From NCBI GenBank assembly GCA_026874595.1, contig CM049313.1:14939508-15003507 (forward strand): DNA of 64,000 nt, written 5' to 3'. The position numbers and the translations under genes are program-made. The notes under the pieces are model-generated. The model did no database searches and was not told the DNA's origin. It saw nothing but the letters and a program-made list of their open reading frames with translations. This document shows positions 76-46,267 of this stretch, in pieces. The stretch is from Sipunculus nudus (Eukaryota; Annelida; Sipuncula; Golfingiida; Sipunculidae). Numbering within the stretch: the stretch's first letter is position 1; each line of letters begins with the position of its first letter.

Positions 76-269
76 AACAGGCCACACTTTGACATAAACT
101 GCCAGAACCACCTTGGTCACACCGGCCTCACCATGGCGGTCCAGAACGAGGACGAGGACATGGTGGAATATCTGATGAACTTTAAATCAATCGAGGTCAA
201 GAGCGCGGTGCTGCATGCCGTCTCAACAGGGAACGAATATATTGTTAGCATGCTACTTGACAAACTAAG
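76..269 (+). CDS. TRPC exon 1 of window: ankyrin repeat
   Basis: Encodes [20 protein letters not shown] and the following helix pair, an ankyrin repeat of the TRPC N-terminal domain. The exon ends CTAAG|gtaaga in phase 2. The acceptor could be the AG at 74-75 or the one at 79-80. The previous exon is outside the window, so the incoming phase cannot be checked. Confidence 0.8.
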
Positions 270-2585
270 GTAAGAACGATAGTCCGTCAACCCTTTCTTC
301 CGACAACCCATTGTTCCTACAGCCTATTAGTCTGAAGAAATGTTGAAAATCCTGATGCAAGATTTTTATGTAGCCTAGAGTAAATATATACCAATACGAA
401 AGCCCTCAGCAAGGTTCGCTAACAAACAATATCAGTTTGTATGTGTGCTCTGGCGACTTTCCTGTGGACTGGTTTCTCTAGTTTTCTGTGAAGTATACTT
501 GATGACAGGAAACTCTATCACTACTAAATTTCTTTTGGTTTGGTGGAAAGTCTACGGTGGCTCGTGTGGGACACACAGCATTTTATTTTTATCTCGTTCC
601 GTAGCAACAGTGTTTCGTTCCCCCGAGATAGTAAAAGTCTGAATAATTGAAGTAATTGTCTTGAATATCAATATTCATGATTCGATTTTGAGTGTAATTC
701 TTTATTATGGTATTCCAACTGCGTAATACATGTTTCACATATACGGGCTGCCTATTAATCCCAATTTATTGTTTTCTATAAATTTTACTGAAAAACACAC
801 GACCACATCAAATAAAATATCATAATCTCCACTTTAATCACGGTTTGATTTAGTACAGGTATTCACTCGCTTAAGGTTTTTTGATATTGTATAATTCATA
901 TATTAGTGCACAGAAGGTTTTTATTTTTTAAATGACAATGGTGCATGAATGACCAGCCTTTGTATTTTCCTTTTCAGTGAAACAGAGGACGTGGAAACTG
1001 CCTTTGAACCAACTGACGAGAGCGCCATGTATGAAGTAACTCCGCTTGTGCTGGCAGCCCAGTTAGACATTTTCGAACTGGTCAAACTTTTCCTGTCCAA
1101 GGGGCATTTTATCATACGGCCCCATCATCCACACTGTGAGCAGACATGTTTTACCATAAACTGTAGCCAAGTTTAAAGCCAGCTATGCACGGGCCTTATT
1201 TGTAGGAATTATGTGATTTCCGGTTATCTCTGCGTACATATTAATGAAATTTAGGTAAATCCTCCTAAAAAAATGTTCTCATAATGCCTCATTGATGGAT
1301 GTATGACTTTGTTCATCTACAAGCTGTAGTAAATACTATAGATGCAGCCATAGTGACAAACAGATGGACTATGTAACTGAAGGTGGTTGGTTACATTTGT
1401 GTGGGAGTTGAAAGGTCACTAGTTGCCAAACGCCCTTTGCAAAACGTTGGTTAGTCAGACTTGCTGTCAGATATCCTTGTTTAATGTGTTTGAATTATTT
1501 TTGCAGTTTCCCTTTATGTTAAAAACGTGTGGGTACGAACAATATAAACAGCCTGTGTACCATGGAAACGGCGTTTTCTGGACTGTTTCTATGAACGGTT
1601 CAAGGGATTAGATCTACTTACTCTGCATCATATATCGAAATAGGTCACTTCAATAAAAAACACCCGAAGAAAAACTTGGAAATAAATTGAAACGGCTACC
1701 GTACTTTCGTGATGCACAGAGAGTCATCAATTCAGTCATACCGTTTGATTTATGAACCATCAGACAAATGTACTTATCCATTTGAACAGCTTACCGAACA
1801 TATTTCAAAGATACGTTCAATATCCAATAATATGTATTTTAGAGTTTGAAAAGAAATCCACGATAAAAATAATTATTTTAATGTGTCGTTTTTTATGTTT
1901 TATGAAGCGTGCCCATAATGTTTTCAGTGATAAATGAATAACTAACCTCGATAGAAATCTCTTAACAAAATACAGAAACCTAGGAGTCGCACAGTAAGAA
2001 TAATGAGTAATGTTTTCAATCATGAGAGAAGTACCAGTGATCTACGAACTGTTCTTGAAACAAGCTAGGAATAGAGAGACGAGCTGACATGACTTGCATC
2101 TTGTTATATAAAAGCATTTACAGCCAGTGCCCATCTTATTTGTTAAAGCGCTTGAGCACAGATATGCACGGTTACGCAACATGGGAAAACGCAACTGGAG
2201 CATTTGTCTGTGCCTAAAGCACGAATAGAATATTTTAGAAACTCTGCCATATATCATGGCCCCCTACTATGGAATAGGTTACCAGCTGATGTGAAGAATG
2301 TGCCCCCTCTTAACAGTTTTATGAAAAGCATAAAAGAATATGTCATATCTTTAAACACGGGATTAATGAGGTTTCTAACTTAATTCTAAAATGTCACCAT
2401 TGTATTTTTATTGCATTGTATTTTTTTATATCAGGGGCTTGTGGAAGACCAGACACAGTGTGAGCAAGTCACCCTGAATAAAGATTTCTTAATAAATAAA
2501 TAAATAAGTCTTCACACAGACAGCTGCTTTCCTTAGGTAAATGAGGGAAGTATGAAACCCCCCCCCCCCCCCACCCCCCACCCTC

Positions 2586-2616
<31 letters not shown>

Positions 2617-5600
2617 CATGCTATATGCTGCTTTTTTCATATTTCTATCCATTAGGTACATGTAAACTAGTGTGCATGAAGAAGAAGAATCCTGAGTGTT
2701 TAGAGGTGTCACGTGGTAGACTGAACTTGTACCGCGCCCTGAGTGGTCCCTCTTACATCGCCCAGTCATCCGGCGACCCCATCTTGACCTGCTTCATGCT
2801 CAGCCAGGAACTGAAGGACTGTGCGGAGTCCGAAAGAGAATTCCAGGTTGGCCAGAGTTTTTGTTACCTTAAGTCAGGAGGGTATGCGTTCACTCCCGTT
2901 TGTGTGTTTGTTCAAACATACCTCATGCATGCAACTATGAACAGAATCTCATGAAATTTTCGAGGAAAGATTAAGGGAAAGGGACAAGGAAGAATCGAAT
3001 AGATTTTGGTGTGGATCATCCTCATGATCGGGCCCAGGGAGACTTCCAGGAATAATGAACCTTGTAATAGATGCCGAATAGGTGGATGCAAACATGGGTT
3101 AGGGAACTTCTGCACAAAAGATTCTGGGAGTATGGGCCGAATATGAGAATGCAAACACGTTTCTGGCAGGATCCCAGACCAGAAGGAATCATTCCTGAGA
3201 ATGCACATTTTGGTTATTTTTTAGATTGCTTAAGGTTTAATTTCAAATTGTACTATTAAATATTTATATTATATAGATTGATTGTACACACTCTTATATA
3301 TCCTTTGTTTATTACATATTTCTTGAGTTTTAATGACGACCATGATGTTGTGACCTTTGTTGTCATATATATGTGTGTGTAGGTATGTGTCTGTGTAGGG
3401 GTGGATGTGTATTTGAAGCTAAACTCTATCACTCATTTTGTTATAGACATTGGTCATAAAGTATAATATACACATTATCGTACACTGAATAATGCAGAGA
3501 TCGCTGTTCCTTTGTAGAAAGAATACCTAGAACTGTCAAAGAAAACGTCACAATTCGCCACCGAGCTGCTTGAACAATGCCATACGAGTGAAGAGGTCGA
3601 GTGTCTCCTGGAGCAAAGGAAAGGCAAGGGAGGAAAACAGACTGGTGACGGGACATATCCCAGGGTCCTCCTGGCGTTAGAGACGGAGCAAAAAAAGGTG
3701 CGAATATTTTCAGTCCACATGGGCACTGTTGCTTGAATTCTTACATCAGGGGAATCGTCGAAGCAATCTAGAGCATAGGACACGTCCTTTGTGATACACA
3801 CCAATAGGTATCTACTTACGAAGTACTATCTAAAGGCACGACCGTACATCCTTTTTCAAATTATGGGCTTTAAGTTTAACATATTTTATCCTGGCAGCGT
3901 TTACTAGAATTCTTGAGATGAATGAAATTAATTATTTACCCATCATGTGACCGCGCAAGCTGTGTTACCCATGCCCGTCGAGAGTTGAATGGTGTTAAGT
4001 TCTTGCGAACATTCGAATATCGTTTCCCCCGTATGACCCGTGACGTGAGCAAAGACACATACGAGATGCTCAGAGAATATTGTACTGCCCTTATTGCTGT
4101 TTTTTTCACCCACAGTTTATGGCTCACTGCTGGTTTGTTTCACCCACACTTTGTGGCCAACTGTTGATTTGTTTCACCCACAGTTTATGGCTTACTGCTT
4201 GTTTGTTTCATCTACATTTTGTGACTCACTGCTTGTTTGTTTCATCCAAATTTTTTGGCTAACGGTTTGTTTTGTCCACAGTTTGTGGCCAACTGTTGGT
4301 TTGTTTTGTCCATAGTTTGTGGCTAACTGTTGGTTTGTTTTGTCCATAGTTTGTTGCTCATCCAAACGTCCAGCAGGTCCTACGGTCTGCCTGGCTCCAG
4401 GACTGGCACAACTGGAAACGGCTGAACCTCTTGGAGAAGCTGGTCCTGGTGGTCCCGCGGATCCTATTCCTGCCTGTCATAGCGTTCTTGTACCTGGTGC
4501 TACCGGGTATCAAGTTCACGGAGACATGGCGGACACCCATCAACAAGTTCATGAGTTTTGCTGCGTCCTATGTGACTTTTCTAGTGTTGCTCTTTGTCGA
4601 GAACCAACTGGACTCCAAGCGATCAGTTAGAGGTCCGCCACGGACAGGTAAGAAGAATTGTCTATGTCATGTACAAACATTGTAATTTCTTTATTTTCAA
4701 ATTTAAAAATTGAATATCAGAATGGCTAATTCGCTATTTGATTTGCATATCCCTGTTATCTCTTCACAGGTCTTGAGTGGGTGATCATCTTGTACATCGC
4801 CGGTTATACGTGGCAGGAGATGAAGCAAGTCTGGGCTGATGGGTTTACGTCTTATCTCAGACAAGGCTGGAACAAGTAAGTATACCGGGCAGTGATTTGG
4901 TTTAGTATCTTATCTCAGACAAGGCTTGAACAAGTAAGTAATCCGGGCAGTGATATGGTTTAATATCTTATCTCAGACACGGCTGGAACAAGTAAGTATA
5001 CCAGGCAGTGATATGGTTTAATATCATATCTCAGACAAGGCTGGAACAAGTCAGTAATCCGGACAGTGATATGGTTTGATATCATATCTCAGACAAGGCT
5101 GGAACAAGTAAGTATACCGGACAGTGATATGGTTGATATTATATCTCAGACACGGCTGGAACAAGTAAGTATACCGGGCAGTGATATGGTTGATATTATG
5201 TCTCAGACACGGCTGGAACAAGTAAGTAACCCGGCCAGTGATATGGTTTAATATCATATCTCAGACAAGGCTGGAACAAGTAAGTAATCCGGCCAGTGAT
5301 ATGGTTTAATATCATATCTCATACAGGTTGGAACAAGTAAGTAATCCGGGCATTGATATGGTTTAATACCATATCTCAGACAAGGCTGGAAAAAGTAAGA
5401 ATACAGGGGCGATGCAAGATTTATGAAAAGAAGGGGTCAAACCCAGGAGGACATGGCAAAACCTAAAAAAAGGTATGCAATAAGGGGGGTCTAGGCCGCA
5501 AAAAATTAGTCTGAAATCTTTAAAAAAAAGGGGGGGGGGGTTCCGACCCCCTGGACCATTCCCCTTGACCCGCTTCTGGTATACCGGGCAGTGATATGGT

Positions 5601-8600
5601 TTAATATTTTATCTGGTAATCACAGACAAGGTTGGACCAAGTGAGTATACCGGGCAGTGACATGGAATGAAAGCTCATTAGTGACGTGGTCGAGACGGAG
5701 TCAATGATCAGGGATTTTGCGGGTTTTTGAAATCTGAAAAGTCATGGAATTTATAATATAAAATTTAAGGCCTTGAAGGTCCATGAAACCTCCATAAATC
5801 TACATCTTTCTGGTATGCTTAACAGGCTTTCAATCACAAAATGGTCCCATCATTGATAATTGCGAAAACTCCTTGAAAATCCTGGAAAAGCTCTGAAATT
5901 AAATTTGGCTTGAAGTGAGGAAACCCTGTTGGATCAGAAACAGAGACAAGGACCAAGTATAATTATTGGGTCACATGTGAACTCATGCCTAAGAAAGATT
6001 GGTGATGTCAACTACAATCCTTTTCGCATATTGTCCATTTGTGCGTCTTTCTAAGCAATACTAGCATATATCTCAGGAGTGGTTCAACGTTTATGGCTTA
6101 AATTGGCATTTTCATAGATCTTGGATACTTTCGTACTTAAGACTTGTGGCGCTATCTGCGATCGTTGTCACTTGGGGTCCATCCGTGCGTTTACTTTTGG
6201 TTAAAATCACTCTTATCTTAGGAGTGGTTCAATGTATCGGCCTGAAATTTGGCGGTCGATCCATCAGGAGGCGCCACCTATTGTCACGTATTCGTAGAAT
6301 ACATCCATGCATTTGTCTCCGGAGACCGAGTGGTTCGACTGTTCGGCCTGAAAGTTTGCATGTCCCAACATCTTTTGTAGCATTCTCGTACACAAGATTT
6401 GTGGTCCAACCTACAATCACCTATTCGTACAATACATCCACGCATTTATCGCAGGAATGTTTTTGTGTGTAATCCTGAAAATTTGCAAGATCTTAGATCT
6501 TGGACTGGTTTATCCTGCATACAAGCTTTATGGCACTACTTGTAATCAATTCCATCTGGGCATCTCTGATCTCATAATTCGGAGGGGTGGCACGTCAGAA
6601 GATATTGCATCCCTCACTTTATTCAATCCTCTGTCCATCAGCGGAGACTTGTGGTCGCTTGTCGACTGCCCACATTCTAGTTAAAGCCACGCTTTTGTAA
6701 TGATTATTCACATTCATGTAATGCTGGCGGTTTTGTCATTACAGTTACGCATTTTTATTCTGATTCCCATTCTGATTTATGAACATGTTTTGTCAATGGT
6801 CTTGTAAGTTATGTTTTGCAATTAAGATCGTGTATTGTGTTCAGAAGGTAAAGAAAGGTCTACATGGCCCCTGGACTAACTCGGCAAGATCTTGTTTTGC
6901 CGGTGTTTTTTTTTTTTATGATTTATGTAATTGTTAATATCTTGAATTAAATGATATCGGTCATGTTAAATGTACAGGTACGACATCGTGATGCTGCTGG
7001 TGTTCCTCCTGACGTTCAGCTGCTGGTTCTGGGCTTACATCGACGTGCAGTTGAACGATCACGAGTATCTACCTCGGAAACTATGGCATCAGTATGACCC
7101 CGCGCTGATCGGTGAAGCCTTGTTCTCTGTGGCAACTATCCTTGCATTCGGCCGAACGATGAACTTCTTCCAGATCGGTAATAGCCTGGGGCCTCTACAG
7201 GTGAACATTGAAATATTTGTTAAATCTCCAACATAGGCCTGGCAAAGGTAAATGACCGAAAAAAAAAGATTAAGTGCTCTGAAAAAATAGAGAAGACTTC
7301 TTCGGAATAAAGAGTGAAAAAAAAAAAGTAAAATAAGCGTCCATTCCCTATTTTGTATCACGGACTGAATAAAGATGTGCTTTACATACTAAAAATGTAT
7401 ATTTATACGTGTATATCGTTCCCAAAGTCAGAAACATACAAGGGGCACATCCCCCTGCATGAAGATGAGGGCGTTTTCTTCATGTTGTGACACATGCCGG
7501 ACATTTCCACACATAAGAATTGCGATATTGTCCTATTCTTGTTCTAACTGGACTGTAAAAGCGAAGAGAAATAGTATATATCAGAATTCTGTCACTGAAA
7601 AAAAAGGAGGGAAAAGGGTGCTGTCGAAAACTATGAGTGAAAAAAGAGCAATTATTGTCATTTTTTTAGGAAATCCTAGAAAAAAAGAGTGATTTGGCAG
7701 GCCTGCAACATCGCGTTTGCTGGTGGCCTCAACTTTCCCCCACCCTCTCCACACATGCACACACACACACACACACACACGTTGTTTCCCAAGCTGTCAG
7801 GCAAAGGGAGGAGAGGAGTTTGTGAGGCCATCAATGTCCATTTCCTTTATTTCCATCTTTAAACTCTCATGGATGATGAACATCAGTGCTTTAACTATAT
7901 TGTGTCAATATTTAACATTTTCCAGTTCAAATTTCCATTGTATCGGTGTTTCGTTAGTATTCTACAAAACATTTGCCGATGTGGATCAGCATCATGTTTG
8001 TTTTTTGTGTTTTTTTTTTTTTTTTGTAAAGGGGGTATATTAATAATAAAAATATGCCAAATGCTATAGTTTTTTTTTTTTAATTTTTAAAGTAATATAA
8101 ATCAGCTATTATATCACGAAAAGTTTTGATAATAAATGCAGGTGTTCGCTGGGTACTTTTTCTGTGTCTATCTACTACATGTTCCGGGACTTGAATCCAA
8201 TTTATATTATGGTATTTAAATACAGATGTCTGTCAGTTACATGTCCCACGATATACATTATCTTATTTGTCTGCAGGTGTCGATCAGTTACATGTTCCGG
8301 GATATGGGTCGGTTCCTCATCATCTTCTTCATCGTGCTGTTTTCCTTTGCCACTGGTCTGAACAAACTTTACCACTCCTACCATGGTATGGTCCGCACAG
8401 ACTCTGAGGGCGAGGTCCGCACCATGTCAGAATCCTTCACTACGTGAGTATCTATAATCCGTGGTCTTGGGGTTGAGTGGTATGGGTGCAATGAAGACTC
8501 CATGGTAACGTGCATGCATGTTCCAAGTCGTGAGAGCATTGTGATTACCTGGATTAGCAGGGGCGGTCCAGAATTTTGGAAAGGGGAGGGGCCAGTCCAG

Positions 8601-8808
8601 GAGGACTGTAAAGAAATAAAAAAAAATGGGTGTCTGGTCCGGAAAGGACCAAAAACCCAAATTTTCAGGTGGTGATTATAGGCTGTTTACCTGTACCAAT
8701 TGAGTGCAGTCTGTCAATGTTTCACAAAAGTGGCAATTTATTGGCGATTATTTTTGTTTCTGCTGTTTTGTCAATTTTTTACAAAATCACTGGTTATATG
8801 GATAATCG

Positions 8809-8890
<82 letters not shown>

Positions 8891-11800
8891 ATCTGCCACT
8901 GGTGTGTGAGTTTATTAAATAGAATTTCACTGTTATGGCTCCCTTATTTCTGACCACTTCTAACCAAAATGAAACAATACCTAAATACTGCATATACATG
9001 GCGGTTCTGGGGATCGGAACTGAAGGTCGCGGTGTCGGGATTCATGGAGCTAGTGCACTATGTATTATGGAAATTTCAAGTACGTTAACAGTACTTTCTT
9101 TCTGTGTCATCTGTTGAAGTGCTCTCAGGACAAGTGTCAAACATTCTGCAATTTGAATATCTTTATTGTTAATCACTTTCTCAAAAGACAACTTTTCATA
9201 ATCGATGGCAAGGGTCCAAAGACCATATTCAGTTTTTTTTTTTTCTCAAAAGCAAGCAAATTTATTTATTTGATCAAATATCCTGATAATTAAGATGTTG
9301 TTCTGCACACTTTTACAGATTCCGGGAGACCATCAAGACACTTTTCTGGGCAATTTTTGCGATGGTTGATTACAATGCTACAGACATCATAATAGAGGAA
9401 CAACGGCAAACCGTCGGCAATGACACCGTGAGAGTTATCAATAAGCACCGCTTGACTCAAGGCTTGGGACACATTCTGTTTGGCATCTACCACATTGCTA
9501 CCATCGTTGTCCTCCTCAACCTGCTTATCGCTATGATGTCTACTTCATTCATGAATGTAGAGGTGTGTACATTGCTTCAGTGTTCAGTAAGAACCCTCGG
9601 GATGAGTGACAAAATGCAAGATGTTTGTGACACATTCCTGACTGATAAAAGTGATATTGCTGAGGCATGAAAAATAATTCACGTTAAGTGTATCACATTT
9701 ATGGAATTAATGCCGTATGCAAACTTTTATGAATTGTCCTATAGTATTGCTTCTTGAAACTATTTATCATTTAAGAATTTAAATAAAAAGCCGTTATTCA
9801 GTCACTGTGCTTTTAATAAATGTGTCTAAATTTCTGGAGAGATAGGCTGGCCGATTTTTTTTTTTAATCTTAGATGGTGAGAGGGGTCTTTTTCTGAGCA
9901 TCATGCACGTTATTATATATGTTATATATTTTATGAAAGATTACTGTGTATTGGCATGAACACTTTACAAGACACTTTCAAATGTCATAAAATTGGTTAA
10001 TGTAGCCCTTTATGTATGTGAAAAACAGAGTCGTTAAGGATCCGTCCTGGATGAAAAATAAAGAAAACCTGTACCTGACGTACACTGCACCATGGCAACA
10101 GCTCAGATGTCAGCTTAATATATACATAACTTTCACCAGAATTATTACAATAACTACTAAGTAAATATATTTCTAAATTAAAAGTCTTTTAGGCAATGAT
10201 GTAGGCTTCAAATTCCTATTGAAACCACCGCTAGTTATCAATATCCTGGAAATGCATGCATGTACTTCTAAGCCGTTTCCAAATGATATAATCAATTGCA
10301 GAACCAATTAGAATAAATGTATTCTTTAATATAGGGTATTTTATCTCTTGTTAATACAAACAAAGGTGTGATTCCAAGTTATATATCCTCCACCCTGTAT
10401 CCCCTTTGTGAGAGTCTGATTTAATCGGGATATGTGTTTTTGTTGTGTATTTCAGAATAATGAGGACATGGAGTGGAAATTCGTTCGAACACAGGTTTGG
10501 ATATCGTACTTTGGTAACGATGGCACCCTCCCGCCGCCCTACAACCTAATCCCCAGTCCTAAGTCCTTCTACCGTCTCATCCGGTGGATCTTCAAGTTTA
10601 TCATCGCATCCGATGAGGCCAAGTATTCACAGTCGGTAAGCTCCCGCATATGCTGTTGCAGATTAAGGAGGGGAGGGAGATACGGGAGCGTGGGGGGACT
10701 TATTAATTATGCAAATACAACATACAAGACGGAAAAATATTTTTTTATTTATTAAAATCATCTACTAAGCATTATAGGAAGTTTATTTTTGTTATTGATA
10801 GTTTTCATCAATAACAAAGTACTTCCGATATAGCTAGTATCAATCGGAGCAAAAAATCCCTGCGCATTTTGTACTTCTGTCTCTTTGATGACAAGTGTCT
10901 CTCATAACATTGGAAAGGAAAACATCTGTCTCCAACATGATCCTTACCAGCACATTTATCAAGTACAGGTACACTAGTTATTAAATATAAATTGCTATAA
11001 TATTCAACCAAAATCTGTGAAAAATTGCATTTCTTTCTAAATATTTATTTATAAGGGTCCGCAATTTATATATATAATTTAGTACACTTGCAAGCTGCAA
11101 GTGACCTAGATTTATCATTTAACTAGGGTCCCATGTGTCTCAACACTCAGCTGAATTTGATTATAAGGATATTTTAATGAGCTTTTTCAAAATGACGCAG
11201 CTGAATTTATCTATAAAGATATTTTTTTTAGCTTTTTACAAATGTCGGTCCTGTAACCTTGACCCTTGACCTTGGAACTTTAAAATCTGAAACTTTCTAT
11301 CTTTGATCTTACATCATTCTGATTTTCATAACATATGATTTGTGCCATGCTAACTGATGGCCGGACAACAAGACGGCGGGGCGGACGCGAACAAAGCGCC
11401 ATTCCTATACCTCAGTTGACTTTTAGTCAGCCGAGCTAAAAACAAACATAAAACTAGACATTTCTTGGCACCGCTGGTGCCATAGTTTCGCCAAACAAAT
11501 GAGGTTTTGTGGTATTTTGTTGATATAATGTGATGTATTTGTATTTTAGCAATGAATGTGAGAAACATTTGTACAAAATAAAGGAATTTAAAGTGAAGGC
11601 AATTGTTATGTAAAAGGTTATGTATAAATAGAAGTATATATTTAATGATGTATTGAGTTGTATATGTATATTTTTCTCCAGACTATGTCTGTCGATACTA
11701 TCAGCATGTTGGGCCAGAAGTGCCCCCCCCCCCCCCCTCCTTTTTTTACACAAAATCCAGATGTTACTTGCTGACCACTGCAAAGTACATTTAAATGTTT

Positions 11801-14512
11801 ATACCAAGCCCTAGTGCAGAAGAAAATATCTTTTCTTAAGTTAGCCAAAGCCATTTGTTTGAGCAGATATGAAATCTTATTTTATACCGGACATTTTCCT
11901 CTTTAATGTTTTATAGTATGTATTTCGTTCTCCGAAGTTGCTCTCCCTCAAATGACATATAAATAAGCTCAAGAGGATTTTGCATTGTTTTCAGCAATGC
12001 TGCTACCTGGACAATGACGATACCAAACCGAAACAGAGTATGAATTATCAGGTGAGACCATTCAAATGATTGATTTTTTTTTAAATTTTATTTGACACGT
12101 TTTACTAATTTTTATTTGGGATCACACCATATTCAAATATGCTAGTCCAGAAGTGAAATGTTGTTTTTTGAGGCGAACGTTGAAAACTAGTTGCCATGAT
12201 TTTTTTTTGCTGGTCTTATATCTTTAGAGTGTGCTGGATGATAGCAGATGCCACGCTGGCATTATATGCAAATTAAGGTGGCCATAACCAAATTTCATTT
12301 TTTGCCCTATAACTTCATTATTATACATAATAAATGAACAGATATGGTGTCTACACCTAGGTTTTAAGATCTCTGGTTCATATTCAGGCATTGCAAAAAT
12401 GTTTTTCAGGTCTTGATAAACCTCTTGGTACAGCAGTATCTGAGCTTTGTGTATTGTTCATGTTTTTCAGGTCTTGATAAACCTCTTGGTACAGCGGTAT
12501 CTGAGCTTTGTGTATTGTTCATGTGTTTCAGGTCTTGATAAACTTCTTGGTACAGCAGTATCTGAGCTTTGTGTATTGTTTATGTTTTTCAGGTCTTGAT
12601 AAACCTCTTAGTGCAGCGGTATCTGAGCTTTGTGTATTGTTCATGTTTTTCAGGTTTTGATAAACCTCTTGGTACAGCGGTATCTGAGCTTCGTGTATTG
12701 TTCATGTTTTTCAGGTCTTGATAAACCTCTTGGTACAGCAGTATCTGAGCTTTGTGTATTGTTCATGTTTTTCAGGTCTTGATAAACCTCTTGGTACAGC
12801 GGTATCTGAGCTTTGTGTATTGTTCATGTTTTTCAGGTCTAGACAAACCTCTTGGTACAGCGGTATCTGAGCTTTGGGTATTGTTTATGTTTTTCAGGTC
12901 TTGATTAACCTTTTGGTACAGCAGCATCTGAGCTTTGGGTAATGTTCATGTTTTACTGTGACAGGTCTGGATGAACCTCTTGGTACAGCGGTATCTGAAG
13001 TTTGTGTATTGTTCATGTTTTTCAGGTCTTGATAAACCTCTTGGTACATCGGTATCTGAGCTTTGTGTATTGTTCATGTTTTTCAGGTTTTGATAACCCT
13101 CTTGGTACAGCAGTATCTGAGCTTTGTGGATTGTTCATGTTTTCAGGTTTTGATAACCCTCTTGGTACAGCACTATCTGAGCTTTGTGTATTGTTCATGT
13201 TTTTCAGGTCTTGATAAACCTCTTGGTACAGCAGTATCTGAGCTTTGTGTATTGTTCATGTTTTCAAGGTCTTGATAAACCTTTTGGTACAGCGGTATCT
13301 GGGCTTTGTGTATTGTTCATGTTTTCCAGGTCTTGATAAACCTCTTGGTGCAGCGGTATCTGAGCTTTGTGTATTGTTCATGTTTTTCAGGTTTTGATAA
13401 ACCTCTTAGTTCAGCGGTATCTTCAGCAGAAATCAACAAACCGCTTCTCAGCAGGTGTTACCATTACAGAGTTTGAAGCTTTACAGCAAGAGGTGTGTCC
13501 TGACTACCTACTTCATGTTTCTTATTATGATTTTCCCGCGTTTTTCCATCTAATCAACAGTCAACCGAAAGTCAGTTGAGCTAATTATACAGTCCGGGCC
13601 GTGACAAAGCATCAAATTTTAATTAATGAGCAGGAAATTGCTGCAGTTTAATGCAGATGTTGAAATTTGATGGGGGGGGGGGGGGGGGGGGGGGAGGAGA
13701 GATAGAGTTTTGCCTAATTAATACCCACTCTGCTGATGTTATTGCCCACTTACAATAATAATCATCAAAATAAGGCAAAATTGGCTTTAGTGATAAATTT
13801 TAACAAAATTGTGAAGTCCTTATTAAATCAGGTTTGCTCATACCCTTCCCCAAATAGATGGATAATATCCCCTCCCCCCACCATTAACAGAGGATATCAT
13901 CAAAATAAGATCAAATTAGCTACTAGGGATATTTTGATGAAAGACCGTGAAGTCCTGATAAGTATCTGTAACATAATTAATTAAAATTGGATCTAATCAA
14001 TGAAGGTATGAAAACAATGAAGGATAAAAACTGCATAACTTTAGACAGTTCAAGCAAATGAAATTCCAAACATGTTGCAGGCATTCCTGTTGTTAATTTT
14101 TACCTTTTTTTCATATTTTACCTCCTACAACCAATGTAGTCTTTTACAGGTTCATGAAATGCAACAGAATATCAAGCGCATCATGAGAGCGGTGGAGGTG
14201 CCACCAAGGGGCTCTGTGACCAGTATGAGAGTGTTACCCCCTGTCCCCATCCGAAGTTTGTCACCCTATATAATAAGTCCATCATATTCCCAAGAGAGAC
14301 GCCCAAGCCCTTCACCCCAAGAGATCACGAGACGTAGAGACAAAAAGAGGCAGAGGCAGCCAAGAAATGGCACAAACAATCCCTACCAGGAGCTGTCTGG
14401 ATCAGATCGGATTATCAGGTCCAGCTCAACTCTTACCAGTGTGTTTGAAGAACCTGCGGAAACCGGCTTCTTGGAATTACCAGACGCTACTGGTCACCAT
14501 TCAGATGCATAA
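76..14512 (+). CDS. TRPC-family cation channel (5' end outside window), 13 exons
   Basis: A canonical transient receptor potential (TRPC) channel subunit: a tetrameric, Ca2+-permeable plasma-membrane cation channel, usually opened downstream of phospholipase C. I joined exons 76-269, 978-1135, 2656-2846, 3518-3697, 4350-4647, 4770-4875, 6978-7200, 8277-8443, 9319-9562, 10456-10635, 11995-12051, 13391-13492 and 14150-14512. All joins keep phase and use GT/AG sites, giving about 818 residues plus a stop. In order they encode the last ankyrin repeats, a TRPC His/Cys zinc motif (PHHPHCTCKLVC), a helical linker, membrane segments S1-S6, the pore helix with LFW, the TRP box EWKFVR followed by [14 protein letters not shown], and a C-terminal helix. 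The paralogue cannot be assigned. Oddities are the pore residues FAM where TRPCs usually have FG, and EWKFVR for EWKFAR. Four junctions are embedded in tandem repeats. The first exon(s) and start codon are missing from the window. Confidence 0.93.
270..977 (+). other. TRPC intron 1, no feature recognised
   Basis: About 700 bp of AT-rich intron. I see no repeat, RNA gene or extra exon in it. Confidence 0.6.
978..1135 (+). CDS. TRPC exon 2: last ankyrin repeat and start of zinc motif
   Basis: The acceptor is ccttttcag|TGAAAC and the donor is CACACT|gtgagc; it enters in phase 2 and leaves in phase 1. It encodes [20 protein letters not shown], a typical TRPC ankyrin helix pair, then [11 protein letters not shown], whose histidines begin the TRPC zinc-binding motif finished in the next exon. 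Confidence 0.88.
1176..1525 (+). repeat. Dispersed repeat, copy 1
   Basis: Begins AAAGCCAGCTATGCAC and shares many blocks in the same order with 52727-53065: GTACATATTAATG, CTACAAGCT/TTACAAGCT, CCATAG..GACAAACAGA, GGTGG.TGGTT, GTTGAAAGGT and GACTTGC. The two copies are clearly homologous but diverged. No tRNA boxes or inverted ends are seen, so the class is unknown. Confidence 0.65.
2040..2512 (+). pseudogene. 3' end of a LINE (reverse transcriptase C-terminus), frameshifted
   Basis: One frame reads [20 protein letters not shown] and continues as [10 protein letters not shown]. After a frameshift another frame reads [20 protein letters not shown], continuing [20 protein letters not shown]. 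These are the typical last segments of non-LTR retrotransposon polymerases ('RR..M..LYK', 'WN.LP..V....S...FK..L'). A 3' tail with AATAAA and (AAAT)n follows at 2477-2508. The fragment is 5'-truncated and dead, and sits in TRPC intron 2. Confidence 0.75.
2558..2618. repeat. Poly-C plus (CT)n tract
   Basis: A run of about 20 C followed by CA-interrupted C and then (CT)n, ending about 38 bp upstream of the acceptor of TRPC exon 3. It may act as part of an unusually long pyrimidine tract. Confidence 0.8.
2656..2846 (+). CDS. TRPC exon 3: Cys motif and linker helices
   Basis: The acceptor is ccattag|GTACATG and the donor is TTCCAG|gttggc. It completes C-T-C-K-L-V-C of the zinc motif and then encodes [20 protein letters not shown] and [16 protein letters not shown]. 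This is the most strongly conserved TRPC N-terminal stretch (RLxxYRxLxxPxYIxLSSxDP). It ends in phase 0. Confidence 0.9.
2847..3517 (+). other. TRPC intron 3, no recognised element
   Basis: About 670 bp with a short (TG)-rich patch near 3369-3400. No coding or repeat feature could be supported. Confidence 0.5.
3518..3697 (+). CDS. TRPC exon 4: linker helical domain
   Basis: Exactly 60 codons, phase 0 at both ends (ttgtag|AAAGAATAC and AAAAAG|gtgcga). It starts [20 protein letters not shown], matching the TRPC linker helix. It ends in [11 protein letters not shown], which leads into the pre-S1 segment of the next exon. Confidence 0.87.
4107..4349 (+). repeat. 34-bp minisatellite carrying the exon 5 splice acceptor
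   Basis: Seven tandem units (4107, 4141, 4175, 4209, 4243, 4273, 4307; one of 30 bp, the rest 34 bp) of the form CACCCACAGTTTATGGCTCA plus CTGCTGGTTTGTTT. They run straight into the true acceptor (gtccatag|TTTGTTGC). Each unit carries a T-rich tract and, in most copies, a CACAG or CATAG acceptor followed by the first bases of the exon (TTTGTGG against TTTGTTG). The copies nearest the exon are the most similar to it. Confidence 0.9.
4350..4647 (+). CDS. TRPC exon 5: pre-S1, S1 and S2
   Basis: The acceptor is gtccatag|TTTGTTGCT and the donor is ACAG|gtaaga, ending in phase 1. It opens with [19 protein letters not shown], the TRPC pre-S1 signature, followed by hydrophobic stretches [18 protein letters not shown] and [19 protein letters not shown]. 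The acceptor is the last of a row of near-identical acceptors in the 34-bp array just upstream. Confidence 0.9.
4770..4875 (+). CDS. TRPC exon 6: membrane segment S3 region
   Basis: The acceptor is cttcacag|GTCTTGAG and the donor is GGAACAA|gtaagt; it enters in phase 1 and leaves in phase 2. It encodes [19 protein letters not shown] and ends SYLRQGWNK, the residues before the TRPC 'WN..D' segment. The last ~20 nt and the donor are repeated about ten times downstream. Confidence 0.88.
4853..5660 (+). repeat. ~58-bp minisatellite carrying the exon 6 splice donor
   Basis: Units of 57-59 bp start TCTCAGACAAGGCTGGAACA, cross the donor (AACAA|gtaagt), and continue TACCGGGCAGTGATATGG. The first unit is the real 3' end of exon 6. 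Further donors lie near 4934, 4992, 5050 (mutated to gtcagt), 5107, 5164, 5221, 5279, 5336 and 5394, and a diverged one near 5642. A MITE-like insertion separates the last copies. Each unit has a stop (TAA) in frame directly after the donor. Confidence 0.92.
5404..5578. mobile_element. CAGGGGCG-ended MITE-like insertion in the donor array
   Basis: Starts CAGGGGCGATGC and ends GACCCGCTTCTG. The reverse complement of the end (CAGAAGCGGGTC) resembles the start, so it has short inverted ends. It interrupts the ~58-bp array. Flanks are GAATA and GTATA, a possible 5-bp target duplication with one mismatch. An internal G run faces a CCCCC block. The superfamily is not assigned. Confidence 0.5.
5707..5931. 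mobile_element. Possible CAGGG-ended MITE
   Basis: Left end CAGGGATTTTGCGGG; right end GAGGAAACCCTG, whose reverse complement is CAGGGTTTCCTC. The inner sequence has many near-repeats (AAAATCCTGGAAAAGC, CCTTGAAAATCC). No convincing target duplication was found, so the boundaries are tentative. Confidence 0.35.
6040..6680 (+). repeat. Diverged ~190-bp tandem repeat
   Basis: Recurring blocks in the same order: GAGTGGTTCAA or GAGTGGTTCGA; GGCCTGAAATTTG, GGCCTGAAAGTTTGCA or CCTGAAAATTTGCA; ACTTGTGGCGCT, GATTTGTGGTCC or ACTTGTGGTCGCT; and CATCCATGCATTTGTC or CATCCACGCATTTATC. About three to four diverged units. Open frames across it are probably chance. Confidence 0.55.
6978..7200 (+). CDS. TRPC exon 7: S3-S4 region and S4-S5 linker start
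   Basis: The acceptor is tgtacag|GTACGAC and the donor is CTACAG|gtgaac, ending in phase 0. It encodes [40 protein letters not shown] and the diagnostic TRPC motif NSLGPLQ at the start of the S4-S5 linker. Confidence 0.9.
7201..8276 (+). other. TRPC intron 7: simple repeats and partial exon 8 copies
   Basis: Holds A-runs near 7260 and 7320, a (CA)n tract at about 7756-7780, T-runs near 8010 and 8070, and, from about 8140, partial copies of the start of exon 8 (described separately). No other gene is seen. Confidence 0.55.
8140..8300 (+). repeat. Degenerate copies of the exon 8 acceptor region
   Basis: Three related segments: TCTATCTACTACATGTTCCG (about 8166), a middle one with ACAGATGTCTGTCAGTTACA at about 8222, and the real GCAGGTGTCGATCAGTTACA at 8274. 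All continue into a form of CATGTTCCGGGAtAtG. Spacings are about 63 and 52 bp. Two upstream copies keep an AG before the repeated segment (GCAGGTGTTCG near 8140 and ACAGATGTC at 8223). Confidence 0.55.
8277..8443 (+). CDS. TRPC exon 8: S4-S5 linker and S5
   Basis: The acceptor is gtctgcag|GTGTCG and the donor is ACTAC|gtgagt, ending in phase 2. It encodes [20 protein letters not shown] and [14 protein letters not shown], which fit TRPC S5. A hydrophilic outer loop rich in Glu/Ser follows. Partial copies of its first ~35 nt lie upstream. Confidence 0.9.
8444..9318 (+). other. TRPC intron 8
   Basis: Contains a MITE-like fragment beginning GCAGGGGCGGTCCAG at about 8558 (similar to ends found elsewhere in the window), a long (TA)n tract, and a T-run near 9232. 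No exon is supported here. Confidence 0.5.
8811..8887. repeat. (TA)n microsatellite
   Basis: Seventy-seven bases of uninterrupted alternating A and T. Open frames of Ile-Tyr repeats across it are artefacts. Confidence 0.97.
9319..9562 (+). CDS. TRPC exon 9: pore and S6
   Basis: The acceptor is cttttacag|ATTCCGG and the donor is GTAGAG|gtgtgt. It encodes [20 protein letters not shown] (pore helix with LFW), a loop with a possible N-glycosylation site NAT, and S6 [19 protein letters not shown], which has the TRPC S6 signature VVLLNxLIAMM. The position usually Gly after IF is Ala here. Confidence 0.92.
9563..10455 (+). other. TRPC intron 9, nothing recognised
   Basis: About 890 bp of AT-rich intron. 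No repeat or gene was identified. Confidence 0.5.
10456..10635 (+). CDS. TRPC exon 10: TRP box
   Basis: Sixty codons in phase 0, with acceptor gtatttcag|AATAAT and donor CAGTCG|gtaagc. It begins [20 protein letters not shown] and continues [19 protein letters not shown]. This is the TRPC TRP-box region, with Val in place of the usual Ala of EWKFAR. Confidence 0.92.
11125..11445 (+). mobile_element. Diverged member of the CAGCTGAGC-ended family
   Basis: Starts near AGGGTCCCATGTGTCTCAAC followed by ACTCAGCTGAATTTG. It ends ACAAGACGGCGGGGCGGACG and then CAGTTGACTTTTAGTCAGCC, with GAGCTAAA. The same start and end are seen at 18339-19403 and 46325-47431, but this copy is shorter and diverged. Confidence 0.55.
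11721..11737. repeat. Poly-C tract
   Basis: A run of 16-17 C followed by TCC and T7, in TRPC intron 10. Confidence 0.9.
11995..12051 (+). CDS. TRPC exon 11: short C-terminal linker
   Basis: Nineteen codons ([19 protein letters not shown]), phase 0 at both ends, with acceptor gttttcag|CAATGC and donor TATCAG|gtgaga. It precedes the conserved 'VxxxLVxRYL' helix, as the variable linker does in TRPC proteins. It is supported by splice sites, phase and position rather than strong sequence conservation. Confidence 0.75.
12402..13419 (+). repeat. 61-bp minisatellite carrying the exon 12 splice acceptor
   Basis: About 16 tandem units of 61 bp precede the real exon at 13391. Units start at 12410, 12471, 12532, 12593, 12654, 12715, 12776, 12837 and 12898 with a strict 61-bp step. 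A disturbed copy follows near 12965, then more to 13330. Each unit contains GTTTTTCAG|GTCTTGATAA, then ACCTCTTGGTACAGCGGTAT, the first ~29 nt of exon 12, and a short spacer GAGCTTTGTGTATTGTTCAT. Each unit thus holds a pyrimidine tract, a CAG acceptor and the exon start, but no donor. Confidence 0.95.
13391..13492 (+). CDS. TRPC exon 12: C-terminal 'LVQRYL' helix
   Basis: Thirty-four codons in phase 0, with acceptor tttttcag|GTTTTG and donor CAAGAG|gtgtgt. It encodes [20 protein letters not shown] and [10 protein letters not shown], matching the TRPC C-terminal helix (xxLVxRYxxxxxx...ExFxxLKQ). Its first ~29 nt are the core of the 61-bp array upstream. Only this last copy continues into real exon sequence with a donor. 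Confidence 0.9.
13557..13590 (+). mobile_element. Solo end of the CAGCTGAGC-ended family
   Basis: The segment CAGTCAACCGAAAGTCAGTT followed by GAGCTAAT matches the terminal hairpin of the family seen at 19380-19403 and 47399-47431. Only the end is present, just after the donor of TRPC exon 12. Confidence 0.4.
13672..13694. repeat. Poly-G tract
   Basis: Twenty-three consecutive G in TRPC intron 12. A G-quadruplex is possible. Confidence 0.95.
14150..14512 (+). CDS. TRPC exon 13: C-terminal tail and stop
   Basis: The acceptor is cttttacag|GTTCATG; 120 codons then TAA at 14510-14512. It starts [16 protein letters not shown], the expected coiled helix. A disordered tail rich in Ser, Pro, Arg and Gln follows, with a basic stretch [12 protein letters not shown], ending DATGHHSDA. 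No VTTRL-type PDZ ligand is seen at the end. Confidence 0.88.
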   Translation, partial: VHEMQQNIKRIMRAVEVPPRGSVTSMRVLPPVPIRSLSPYIISPSYSQERRPSPSPQEITRRRDKKRQRQPRNGTNNPYQELSGSDRIIRSSSTLTSVFEEPAETGFLELPDATGHHSDA

Positions 14513-14554: not shown

Positions 14555-14860
14555 AATTATGAAACATGAAAAAACGAAACATGAAATTTGTAAGCATGAA
14601 TCTATGTTTTGTATGACCAAGACATTAAGTTACAAAACATGAATTTGTAAGCATGAACCCATGTTTTGTATCATCCAACCATGAAATTACGAAACATAAA
14701 TTTGTAAACAAGGATCCATGTCTCATCTAAACCAAACATGAAATTATGAAATATGAATTTGTAAGCAAGAATCCATGTTTTATCTGAACCAAACATGAAA
14801 TTATGAAACATGAATTTGTAATCAAGAACCCATGTTTTATCTCATCCAATGCTCCGCTAT
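14555..14860 (+). repeat. ~60-bp tandem array in the TRPC 3'UTR
   Basis: About five imperfect units built from ACATGAATTTGTAAGCATGA, an ATCCATGTTTTATCTGAACC-like segment, and AAACATGAAATTATGAA. It begins about 45 bp after the stop codon. Confidence 0.8.
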
Positions 14861-15401: not shown

Positions 15402-15690
15402 TTCCCAATTGTAACTATGGTATATAGGCCTGCTCCTTGACATCCCAATTGCAACTATGGTATGTAGGCCTGCTCCTTGACATCCCAATTGTAATTATGG
15501 TATTTAGGCCTGCTCCTTGACATCCCAATTGTAACTATGGTATATAGGCCTGCTCCTTGACATCCCAATTGTAATTATGGTATTTAGGCCTGCTCCTTGA
15601 CATCCCAATTGTAATTATGGTATTTAGGCCTGTTCCTTGACATCCAAATTGTAACTATGGTATTTAAGCCTACTCCTTGACTTACAGGTA
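15402..15690 (+). repeat. 40-bp tandem array in the TRPC 3'UTR
   Basis: About seven units of 40 bp: CATCCCAATTGTAACTATGG followed by TATATAGGCCTGCTCCTTGA. Copies differ mainly at GTAACT/GTAATT and TATATAGG/TATTTAGG. Confidence 0.92.
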
Positions 15691-25200: not shown

Positions 25201-28200
25201 CGACAGGTCCAGTAAAATTCCCTCTGCCAAGATAACAAGAGCGGTTGGCAGCATTTGTCTGAACCCGTGTATTAACTGTCAAATTGTGACTCGCGAATCG
25301 TAATTGTTTCAGTCAGTCAGTACATTTTGACTGCGCTCATCGCATGTGCACCTGAATATCTCGGGCTGATTGGCTAAGCGAGAGTTTGTTAGGCCTACTT
25401 TCAAGAGTGGTGGTCAGATAAAACATTAACACTGAGGCTGAGGGTTATAGTGTTTTAAAGTCTCGCCGAACTCAACATAAGCGAAGGCCTAAAAATATTA
25501 AGACAAATTAAATGGGAAAATTAGTAGCCAAGTGGAAGCCCAGAATAGGCGATGACTGGATGAACCATGTTGGTTTTGAAAAAGATTCTGGGAAAGACCA
25601 CTGCTTAATGTCACTGGAAAAGACCTTAGTTCAGCCAGGCGGTGATGTGTGGGGCTGACCATCCGGGAACTGGCCAAGATTACCAGTCCATGAAATAAGA
25701 GGGTCAGATATTGGAAAATTAGTTATATGAGTTGCCGCAAGATTGCGGTAACAATACTTAGTGCGATACAACCCGGAAACGTTTGATTTCATTGTCAGAA
25801 GCAACAATTAAGTCATAACTATTTCATGGTCTGGGCCATTCTAGGGGTGGATGGATTGTTAGATTCACCATGTATTGCTTAAAAATATGATGTGGTAAAG
25901 AGAAATCATGTGAAGTATTTTTTCATCAACAAATTTGCATTTCATATTTTTGTATTCTCCAAGATTTCAAAATTAACAGTCAACATATCTCTGACATCAG
26001 TGCAAAAAGGCACTAAATTTTGTGATTATAAACACACATATAAAAATGAGAAAAATATAATCACAAACTATACTCATTTACCTCTAGGTCTTGTGGAGCC
26101 CCTCTCATAGTTAGTATTTCATTTTCTTGTGCATCAAGGACCTGGAATTCCTGAACAAAGAAGGTATGTCTGAAACAAGAAAAGTAACAATTGAATGAGG
26201 GACTTTTATATTATTTTAAGCAAAAAAACCTCATCATCACACCATGTTTTTTATCTTAGACACAGCTGCAGCATGAGTTGTAATTATTATGTTTAAGTGA
26301 AAAGCTAAAATGTACCAGACGGATCTACAAATACAATGTACAGCATGCTGTATTAGACTATTGTATATGAGACGAGGTAATATTTTGGCCTTAAAATTAT
26401 GTTAATCTTTTTCCTTTAAGTACATATAATGGCTTAATGAAGAATCAATGTAATCAGTGCAATAACCAATTAAAATCTAAAAACCTCACAAAATTATAAA
26501 ATATTAATTCCTTGTACAAAATTATATTTGGAATAATCAAATATTTGGTTATGAAATGTATGCACAGTGAACAAATTGAAAATGAGAGCTAAAACTAGCT
26601 ACACTGATTATTCACATATAATGGATGATATCATGATAACATGCTGACCTTGCTTGAAAGCTTTCTAACAAAATATCATTTCAGAAAGAGGTTAGTGTTC
26701 TAGTTTTCTGAGAACAGAATTGGTAACATTAATATGAAACAAAAATCTCACAGAGATACTGATGGACTCACTTTCGTTTTACAAAACCCAAAATGCATCC
26801 TACAGGTGCATAGACCACAGCCTGGAAATGGCATCGCTTGCACCAGTGCCAGTTGATGCCACAGCACATACAGAGGGCGCCACCAGGATTATAAACCTGC
26901 ATCACTTCCTGTTTGTGTTTGTTGTATATTCTGTAAAGGAACGAGTCCTCACCCAAAGGAGGGGGTTCTGAAATAAACGAAGAAGGCTGTTCATTACTTA
27001 TAATGAAATATGTTTGTATTGTTATTTATGCAGTGGTTTTATCATCTCTATTGTCATAAATTCATGGCCAAACAACATACTATGGCTGATACATGTACAT
27101 TACATGTCTACCGGTTAATGATACAGAGGTGCACTGCATCATTAAATACAAACATGTATATCATCCCAGATGGGACTTTTAATGTAAGATCACAAGTTTG
27201 AATATGACCTTAATTACCTTGTTCAGCATGGACTACCACTCTTTTGGTGACATCAATAACTTCCCTCCTGGCCACAGCAGTATCAGAGAACTCTACAAAT
27301 AAATAACACACAAACAGTTATAAATATACAAAGATGATATACTTATATTAAAAAAAAGTATGAGAACAACTCTACTCCACACTGTATGTATGATATATGA
27401 CTCATAGCTGTCAATGTCATCAAGCAAAAGACACATAATGGACATGTAGAATGTAGGACTGTTCTGACTGGGGCTTGAAAAATTCACTGGTTCACTGATA
27501 CATCATGACACAAAGTAAAATATCATATTGGTATCATCAGCATCATATTGGTATCATCAGTATCATATTGGTATCATCAGCATTATATTGGTGTCATCAG
27601 CATCATATTGGTATCATAGCATCATATTGGTATCATCAGCATCATATTGGTATCATCAGTATCATATTGGTATCATCAGATATCCCTGTATTGATACTTT
27701 GACAATACATCACCATACAGCAGAAGGCCTGAAAATTATATGTTGACCTCCTACATTTTATATATCAAAATCCTGGGAGTTATCTCGGTTTATTCCAGGA
27801 TTTGCAGGGATTTTTATTCAAGAAAAAATTAAGTAAATCATCAATATAAATTGATCAAAGCTGCATATGAAAGGTGTTCCTTTGCACCTGCCATATCCAA
27901 TATGGAGTAAATAGTGCAAGTGCCCAATTGGACAGCAACTAAATAGTGTAAGCTCTCCGTTGGACAGCAACTAAATAGTGTAGGTGGCCTAGTGTAAGTG
28001 TTCATTGGACAGCAACTAAATAGTGTAGGTGGCCTAGTGTAAGTGTTCCATTGGACAGCAACTAAATAGTGTAAGTGGCCTAGTGTAAGTGTTCATTGGA
28101 CAGCAACTAAATAGTGCAGGTGGCCCAGTGTAAGTGTTCATTGGACAGCAAGTAAATAGTGTAAGCTCTCCGTTGGACAGCAACTAAATAGTGTAGGTGG

Positions 28201-44268: not shown

Positions 44269-46267
44269 TTATTTCTTCCACATGTTGGGAGGCATGGATC
44301 GAGGAATCATGTCCAAGAGATACTGTCTGTGTAGATCTGTCATACTCTTAGGCGGCTGACCATACGGAAACATGGCCCGAGGGTTAAAGGGCTGGAGACC
44401 GATGTGAGGCCCCCTCAGTGACGCCTGATGAGCCTGGATTAGATTTTGGTGTGCACGGTACGGTTCCGGGGGTGTTTTGTACACATTTGACATGGTTGGT
44501 ACCCCCATTGACGTGTGGGCTGTTGGTGGCTGGTGAGCAGCCGGGGCGGTGGTAGAAGGCTGCTGCGACTGCTGTGGTTGCTGTTGTATTTTCTGTTGCT
44601 GTTGTTGCTGTTGTTGCTGTTGTTGTTGCTGCTGTTGCTGCTGTTGTTGTTGCTGTTGTATTTTCTGCTCGATCTCCTGTTCCTGTTGGAGGGCCTTTAC
44701 AAATGCGCTCTTCAGTCTGTTTGTGTGTTCCTGTTTCAGTGCCTTTTTCTGATTAGATGTCACACAGTTCTCACATATGACATTTTTGGAGCCTGGTTTT
44801 TCTCGCTTCCAAACTGGTGTGAAATCAGTCTTGCACTGAACACAAACAAACGGGTTGAACACATACTTGACATCTGGGGCAGCCTCACCCCGTGCACGTG
44901 AGTCTGCTTCCTTTATGAACCCCACCACTTCCTCCAGCCCACACAACAGAATAAACTCATTGCTGGCCAGACTGGGGATAAAATTCATCTCTGGCGGAGG
45001 CGGCTTGGGAGGTGGGATTTGGAGGAGTGTCTTTTCAAGCTGTTTGCGGAGAGCGAGTTTGGCAGCAGCTTGCCTCTGAGCAGGAGTCTGCTCCGGCTGT
45101 TGAGGAAGCTGGGGCTGTGGAGGAGGAGCGGAGGGACGATATCCCTGAATGACGCTGGCCTGAGTCGACCCTGACTGTAAGTTGCGCATGCTCTGATGCA
45201 TCATCTGATGTGAACGTCCATGAGGACCCATCACAAGCGGAGGTGGGGCGTGGCTTTGAGACTGCCCGTGTTGAGAGCTACTACTTGAGCGACCGGGATG
45301 TATGGGCACTTGTTGAGATCTGCCGTGCATGGTCCGAATGTTTTGCGACCCTCTCACCAGAGGTGGAGGTGTGTTGTGAGTGGGTCGTGGCGCAGGGGGC
45401 TTCGGTGGGTGGTGAGTTGTTCCGTTTTCCTGGATATGACTGATCATCTGACTCTGTCTCAATTTCTTCAGCAGCACCAGTTTGGCCTCTTCATTCCTCA
45501 GTTCCTCTTGCAGCCTTTTAATTAAACGTTGCCTCTCTTTCAGCTGCTCTGGGGTCATCTCTACAAATCCATTCACCATTCCTTTCACCTCTGTGTCCTC
45601 CTCCTCGTCTGATAACATTATTATATCAGATCCACCGTTGGCACTTTTTGTGGCTCTACTTAAGTCCATTGGAGCGTCATTTAATGTATTCACGTTTTCT
45701 TTATTATCCTCAACCTGACCATTTCCTGATGCTGCAGCAGGCTTATCAGATGCAGCTGTATCAGAGGCAGCAGATGTGTTATCGCTTGTAGCTGTATCAG
45801 TGGTTGCAGCTATGTTATCACTTGCAACTGTGTTATCAGCTGCAGTATCGTTATCAGATGCAGTGGACTTATCAGCTGCAGATGAGTCATCAGTTGCAGC
45901 TGGGTTACCTGATTCAGCTGTATCATCAGATACAGATGAACTTTCAGAACTTTCTGAAGGTTTAGTATCTTCATCTTTTACTGCATCCACCTCCATTTTT
46001 TCTGGAGCATCTTTAATAGACTCGCTTTCAGCACCATTTTTATCATTCTGGCTTACTTCAACAGTTTTGCCATTTTGACCATCATTACTACCGTCCTCTT
46101 CAGCTGGTGTGTCATGGCTGGCTTCCTCACTAGTTTTAATATCAGCTGTCATCTCTTTTTTTCTGGTTAATTCCAAAGCAGCTGATTCATCTTTGGGTTC
46201 ACTTGGAACATCATCGAGATGCTCTACAGTTTTCTCATCCTCATCTTCCTCATCTCCCATTCTCTGC
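44269..46267 (-). CDS. GATAD2: p66 exon 3: CR1, linker, GATA finger, poly-Q, C-terminus
   Basis: A single 2-kb exon. The acceptor is acttgcag|GCAGAGA at 46267 and the stop is TAA at 44269. It encodes both conserved regions of p66. The ATG at 46260 gives a long open frame by itself, but the upstream exons join in phase and add the conserved MKRAS segment, so it is probably not the start. The C-terminus reads LHRQYLLDMIPRSMPPNMWK. Confidence 0.95.

What the first reader, a model, noticed from the sequence alone, without database searches (positions are those of the whole stretch)
4107..13391. One channel gene with several independently amplified splice junctions
Within a single TRPC gene, three unrelated minisatellites (34-bp, ~58-bp and 61-bp units) and a weaker triplication each start at an exon/intron boundary and copy the splice site plus 6-30 nt of exon. 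Intronic minisatellites are common, but four in one gene that all contain the junction itself is hard to put down to chance. It suggests a local mechanism that duplicates junctions, or selection on splice-site multiplicity. One possible effect is tuning of the amount of productive channel mRNA through rows of decoy sites.
Basis: partly seen in the sequence, partly recalled or inferred. Interest (0 to 1): 0.85.

Follow-up and report, generated by a model that had tools for sequence, protein, structure and literature searches.

The report
Minisatellites that repeat splice junctions
In the peanut worm genome, short repeated DNA blocks often contain the exact place where a gene's coding piece meets an intron, so the cell faces rows of look-alike cutting sites; this was known as an oddity of lancelet genes and seems here to be a recurring habit of an unrelated animal.

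Summary
A TRPC4/5-like gene (12 GT-AG introns in the window) carries three minisatellites that contain a splice junction: 34 bp x 7.9 at 4095-4358, 58 bp x 9.5 at 4853-5399, 61 bp x 16.7 at 12399-13422. A fourth junction (acceptor 8277) has two degenerate copies. The arrays straddle the junction (9, 23 and 32 nt of exon inside) rather than start at it. The genome is Sipunculus nudus (HiFi assembly), so misassembly is unlikely.

It is not special to the channel. Junction-spanning arrays also occur in 3 of 8 TRPC paralogues and 2 of 5 myosin fragments, none chosen for arrays. Without the index gene, an objective exon set has 4 of 107-130 junctions in arrays, against 0.32-0.39 expected from array density (P about 5e-4). 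By plain base coverage junctions are no more repeated than introns, and a strict subset gives P=0.17.

The structures match lancelet "mirages". In this gene decoy sites score like the real ones, and every decoy tested leads to a premature stop. Selection on decoys is not shown. Most likely these are tolerated mirage minisatellites born preferentially at junctions; tuning of channel mRNA is unsupported.

The parts
4095..4358 (+). 34-bp x 7.9 minisatellite containing the acceptor of exon 4350-4647; last copy is the functional one, 9 nt of exon included; AG kept in 4 of 7 decoy copies
   Evidence: TRF; unit table; counts
4853..5399 (+). 58-bp x 9.5 minisatellite containing the donor of exon 4770-4875; first copy functional, 23 nt of exon included; GT kept in 9 of 9 decoy copies
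12399..13422 (+). 61-bp x 16.7 minisatellite containing the acceptor of exon 13391-13492; last copy functional, 32 nt of exon included; AG kept in 16 of 16 decoy copies
8157..8276 (+). two degenerate upstream copies (about 8157-8189 and 8214-8254) of the acceptor region of exon 8277-8443
   Evidence: local alignment score above all 500 shuffles for each copy
77..14512 (+). TRPC4/5-like channel gene, 13 exons in window: 77-269, 978-1135, 2656-2846, 3518-3697, 4350-4647, 4770-4875, 6978-7200, 8277-8443, 9319-9562, 10456-10635, 11995-12051, 13391-13492, 14150-14512; the 5' end of the coding region is not in the window
   Evidence: (model), (TRPC4 chain 8wpl_B, E=4.2e-135)
11148..11244 (+). 50-bp x 1.9 purely intronic repeat (counter-example)

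Best explanation
These are 'mirage' minisatellites: a local tandem duplication (units of 34-87 bp in the cases seen) happened to span an exon-intron junction and then grew and shrank by slippage or unequal exchange. Because one complete junction always remains next to the intact exon, the extra copies lie on the intron side and can be removed with the intron: the 5'-most donor or the 3'-most acceptor is the one that keeps the protein. In Sipunculus nudus such arrays occur in unrelated genes, and array births seem concentrated at junctions. Shown: anatomy, occurrence in unrelated genes, an excess over array density in a small sample, decoys of similar strength. Inferred: use of the exon-proximal copy (from the reading frame; probably by exon definition), near-neutrality, and a birth bias rather than selection as the cause of the excess. 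The molecular cause of the bias is not known.
For: Arrays and junctions. Same structure in 3 of 8 TRPC paralogues: 58 bp x 4.4 donor, 39 bp x 41 donor, 87 bp x 2.9 acceptor, and in 2 of 5 myosin fragments picked by exon density (the fifth also for its small size): 82 bp x 5.8 acceptor, 35/61 bp x 3 donor. Excess: (4 of 107-130 junctions, expected 0.32-0.39, background 19 arrays in 286 kb). Genome-wide exact triplets of the donor word AGGTAAGT at period 36-40: 18 distinct arrays (89 matches) vs 7 for the word reversed (43 matches), although the two words are about equally common once (9 and 10 in 286 kb); 18 vs 7 has one-sided P=0.02. In this gene decoys score like the functional site (medians 6.3 vs 5.8, 8.6 vs 8.6, 11.6 vs 11.6). 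The exon part varies from 9 to 54 nt over eight arrays, as expected for breakpoints anywhere around a junction. In the 61-bp array, units 1-2 and 6-7 are identical, as expected from unequal exchange.
Against: Base coverage shows no excess at junctions (8 of 125 junctions vs 258 of 2013 intron windows). The excess rests on 4-5 arrays outside the index gene; with both-ends-trusted introns only it is not significant without this gene (P=0.17). The wider pattern scan differs little in raw match counts (820 vs 640 for the reversed word). Two further control words at the narrow spacing did not complete. No RNA data, no population data, no second species.
Confidence: 0.6

Rival explanations
1. Chance only: a genome rich in minisatellites, many junctions, and a reader who picked the most striking gene. 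Junctions are repeated no more than any intron position.
For: Coverage is not higher at junctions (6.4% vs 7.6% of intron bases). Three hits in this gene have P=0.10 at the rate seen elsewhere. Strict two-sided set without this gene P=0.17.
Against: Coverage counts every copy of an intronic array but each junction once, so it hides an excess of births. Per array, 4 vs 0.32-0.39 expected with an objective exon set that excludes this gene.
Confidence: 0.22
2. Selection keeps rows of splice sites, either as spares against mutation or as decoys that divert some transcripts into dead-end isoforms and so set the amount of channel mRNA.
For: Splice dinucleotides in decoys are kept somewhat more than other columns (4 of 164 vs 206 of 3883 mismatches); decoys in this gene score like real sites; use of any of the 9 donor and 16 + 4 acceptor decoys tested gives a premature stop.
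Against: P=0.15, and copies are not independent. The 34-bp array has lost AG in 3 of 7 decoys. Arrays lie at different exons in the different paralogues and also in myosins, so no gene-specific role. RT-PCR in lancelet mirages suggested regular splicing (PMC3087553, passage).
Confidence: 0.13
3. Assembly artefact: copies inserted or multiplied during assembly.
For: A draft lancelet mirage was said to be aberrantly assembled (PMC3087553, passage).
Against: HiFi assembly (PMC10212961, passages); the arrays of this gene are 0.26-1.02 kb with diverged copies, far shorter than such reads (recalled). Copy number may still be off by a few.
Confidence: 0.03

Closest known systems
'Mirages' of amphioxus Adh3, troponin C, globins BflGb6 and BflGb9, PGBD5 (PMC3087553 passages; PMC3902484 passages; the original Adh3 paper is not held)
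   Same: Tandem repeats (10-160 bp units in the passages) that contain an exon-intron boundary; donor or acceptor side; many but not all copies keep AG/GT; several loci in one genome.
   Different: Sipunculan worm, not a cephalochordate; three clear and one degenerate array in one gene; about 41 copies in a paralogue; a rough estimate of how often arrays fall on junctions.
Variable internal tandem repeats at exon-intron boundaries of human segmental duplications (PMC2812944, passages)
   Same: Minisatellites that touch exon-intron boundaries and may shift splicing or create introns.
   Different: There the exon or intron is lengthened in recent paralogues; here the exon is unchanged and the extra copies lie in the intron.
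Dual-specific AGGT splice sites in the polyubiquitin gene UBC (PMC10809524, abstract)
   Same: A tandem array in which every unit carries a splice site.
   Different: UBC units are coding monomers spliced in variable number; the units here are 1 mod 3 in this gene and would give premature stops.

Membership tests
mirage (junction-spanning minisatellite) | Tandem repeats whose unit contains an exon-intron boundary | tested here: met
mirage (junction-spanning minisatellite) | Occurs at 5' and at 3' boundaries of exons | tested here: met
   donor 4875; acceptors 4350, 13391
mirage (junction-spanning minisatellite) | Many but not all copies keep the AG/GT signal | tested here: met
   AG 4 of 7, GT 9 of 9, AG 16 of 16 decoys in this gene
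mirage (junction-spanning minisatellite) | Repeat turnover with homogenisation among copies | tested here: inconclusive
   61-bp array only: identical copies five units apart, but no distance trend (Spearman -0.07, P=0.41), and the functional copy is not an outlier
mirage (junction-spanning minisatellite) | Regular splicing despite the copies | not testable with these tools
   no RNA data held
mirage (junction-spanning minisatellite) | Length polymorphism, somatic instability | not testable with these tools
   one assembly only
TRPC channel, TRPC4/5-like | Alignment to TRPC over ankyrin region and channel core; TRP_2 domain | tested here: met
   TRPC4 over residues 4-714, E=4.2e-135; TRP_2 match at window 2661-2843, over the cut-off

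The most novel reading that the evidence does not exclude
In some animal genomes tandem duplication is actively focused on exon-intron junctions, for example by a process coupled to transcription or splicing (RNA-DNA hybrids, or repair templated by unspliced RNA). Mirages would then be a mutational signature of splicing on DNA, seen independently in cephalochordates and sipunculans, and a standing source of new splice sites and introns.
Probability: 0.2. Interest if true: 0.85.

Novelty: new member of a known kind. Interest (0 to 1): 0.55.

Why it matters
In the papers I could see, mirages were a curiosity of lancelets. A distant animal with several of them in a small sample suggests the phenomenon is not a quirk of one lineage. 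It makes two questions testable in one published genome: why minisatellites arise at splice junctions, and how the spliceosome picks the exon-proximal site among as many as about 41 similar ones. It also offers raw material for models of intron gain by duplication of splice signals.

Tried and rejected
A kinesin search did not complete. The N-terminal exon of the channel was sought by one motif on the + strand of 20 kb upstream and not found. The broad donor-word scan (N16-46) could not be reduced to distinct arrays for the reversed control, because long arrays filled the list of 100 rows; a narrower scan replaced it. The words GATGAAGT and TAAGGTGA at N28-32 did not complete. A GC explanation finds no support: array GC 0.33-0.41, introns 0.35, exon ends 0.45. 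Paralogue T3 was dropped from the hand-made junction counts because its exons could not be fixed (a 72-bp satellite follows); T2 and T7 gave only two and one junctions. Two junction coordinates were off by one or two bases and were mended from then on. In the hand-made set three one-sided junctions (T4 10990, T5 12578, L037 1198) may have been kept partly because of their arrays; that is why the objective set was made. L037 is not among its hits, and the exact donor of that exon is uncertain. In one search hits were allowed up to period 170 while the background is for 25-100; all four hits also have a TRF row within 25-100.

Full report
What it is. The window is C8:14939508-15003507 of a 1.4265 Gb genome. 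The length of C8, 80,869,746, equals the scaffold N50 printed for the Sipunculus nudus HiFi/Hi-C assembly (PMC10212961, passages); that paper gives 1,426,776,655 bp in all, slightly more than held here. The gene is a TRPC4/5-like channel (best solved relative TRPC4, E=4.2e-135) with 13 exons in the window and 12 GT-AG introns.

The arrays. TRF gives 34 bp x 7.9, 58 bp x 9.5 and 61 bp x 16.7. Aligned copy by copy, the real junction is the last copy for the two acceptor arrays and the first copy for the donor array, so the extra copies lie in the intron. The exon part is 9, 23 and 32 nt. A fourth acceptor (8277) has two old copies that TRF misses.

Consequences. All three units are 1 mod 3. Using any of the nine downstream donors gives a stop at codon 376 of the 819 in the window; the 16 upstream acceptors of the 61-bp array and the 4 of the 34-bp array that keep AG also give early stops. 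A splice-site matrix built from 61 donors and 59 acceptors outside arrays scores decoys of this gene like the real sites: 3 of 4, 7 of 9 and 11 of 15 decoys score at least as high. The exception among the eight arrays is paralogue T5, where 1 of 39 does, though 38 of 39 stay above the lower quartile of real sites. So site strength does not explain correct choice in this gene. Exon definition (exons of 102-298 nt) is the likely reason; this is inference.

Not one gene. The genome has nine TRP_2 matches including this gene. I fetched 20-30 kb at each of the eight others and placed exons by a spliced alignment script; coverage is uneven, with few exons placed in T2 and T7 and none trusted in T3. 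Three of the eight have clear junction arrays: T1 58 bp x 4.4 at a donor, T5 39 bp x 41 at a donor, T4 87 bp x 2.9 at an acceptor. T4 also has a degenerate acceptor-like array that ends about 12 nt before another exon, not counted. Of five myosin fragments (L034-L038, chosen from the 75 exon matches by how densely the exons lay, the last also for its size), two have them: L034 82 bp x 5.8 at an acceptor, and L037 35/61 bp x 3 at a donor, with a second 31-bp x 12 array of related sequence about 0.7 kb past the exon end. L035, L036 and L038 have none at junctions.

Is it more than chance? Two measures disagree and both are reported. By coverage, 8 of 125 hand-trusted junctions lie in arrays (6.4%) against 7.6% of 52,404 intron bases for periods 20-200 and 12.3% for 20-500, and 8 of 125 against 258 of 2013 intron windows: no excess. 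But an intronic array counts as many bases as it has copies, while a junction counts once. Counting each array as one birth in collapsed sequence (129 junctions, periods 20-200), 8 arrays contain a junction and 11 do not, with 1.04 expected (P=1e-4). Without the index gene it is 5 and 10, 0.95 expected (P=0.007); with periods 20-500 it is 5 and 11 (P=0.025); with periods 25-100 and at least 2.3 copies it is 5 and 4, 0.23 expected. For introns with both ends trusted it is 5 and 6 (P=0.004), and without the index gene 2 and 5 (P=0.17). With an objective exon score instead of my choice, and without the index gene, 4 of 107-130 junctions are in arrays against 0.32-0.39 expected (P=3e-4 to 7e-4). 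The background there is 19 arrays in 286 kb: 29 rows, less 8 junction arrays, with three rows of one satellite counted once. A genome-wide exact scan gives the donor word AGGTAAGT in 18 distinct arrays of period 36-40 (89 matches) against 7 for the reversed word (43 matches), though the two words are about equally common as single copies (9 and 10). I counted distinct arrays by eye from the complete lists. At the wider spacing, match counts were 820 for the donor word and 640 for its reverse, 428 for GATGAAGT and 474 for its reverse, and long arrays dominate them. This points to a real but still roughly measured bias.

Selection? Splice dinucleotides in non-functional copies differ from the consensus in 4 of 164 cells, other columns in 206 of 3883 (odds 0.45, P=0.15); exonic columns 99 of 2100, intronic 107 of 1783 (P=0.08) (seven arrays; L037 was left out). 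Copies are not independent, so this is at most a hint. The 34-bp array has lost AG in 3 of 7 decoys.

Known kind. [quoted passage not shown] PMC3902484 (passages) adds PGBD5 and troponin C. My searches (without a lancelet term as a must; with one) listed nothing like it in sipunculans or annelids. I saw listings only, capped at 8-25 rows of up to 1,508 papers, in an open-licence library, and none of the rows shown names sipunculans; so this is weak evidence of absence. Human minisatellites at exon-intron boundaries in recent paralogues (PMC2812944, passages) and dual-specific sites in UBC (PMC10809524, abstract) are related but different.

Verdict. Observation confirmed; 'not chance' moderately supported, as a property of the genome; 'tuning of channel mRNA' unsupported. 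Best filed as mirages in a lineage where I found no earlier report.

Noticed in passing
window 44272-46290 (-): Large open coding stretch of a p66/GATAD2-type NuRD subunit (P66_CC E=2.5e-16, GATA E=7.4e-7), with 36-bp repeats inside.
   Followed up: partly
window 27944-29070 and 29600-29848: Two arrays of the same 46-bp unit (about 20 and 5 copies) carrying donor-like GTAAGTG; I did not find an exon beside them, but looked only at open frames.
   Followed up: partly
window 14562-14849 and 15403-15681: Two more minisatellites (57 bp x 5, 40 bp x 7) after the channel's stop codon, with no junction of this gene in them.
   Followed up: no
L018, L019, L032 (C10:56.88-56.91 Mb): A 72-bp satellite (339 copies in the joined stretch, over 24 kb) starts about 0.6 kb after a 5' coding match of TRPC paralogue T3.
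   Followed up: no
L037 1176-2312: A myosin exon end followed by two arrays, 35/61 bp and 31 bp, both with CACAG|GT; the second lies about 0.7 kb into the intron, as if an older copy had been displaced and re-amplified.
   Followed up: partly
L036 3294-5776 and T1 (L014) 1809-2773: A 337-bp tandem family (GTTAAC..GGCACAAATCGTAAC) occurs near exons of unrelated genes, perhaps a dispersed satellite.
   Followed up: no
   Followed up: no
G000 C2:37218464-37222893: A long array of period about 53 carrying AGGTAAGT in many units, found in the pattern scan; sequence not read.
   Followed up: no
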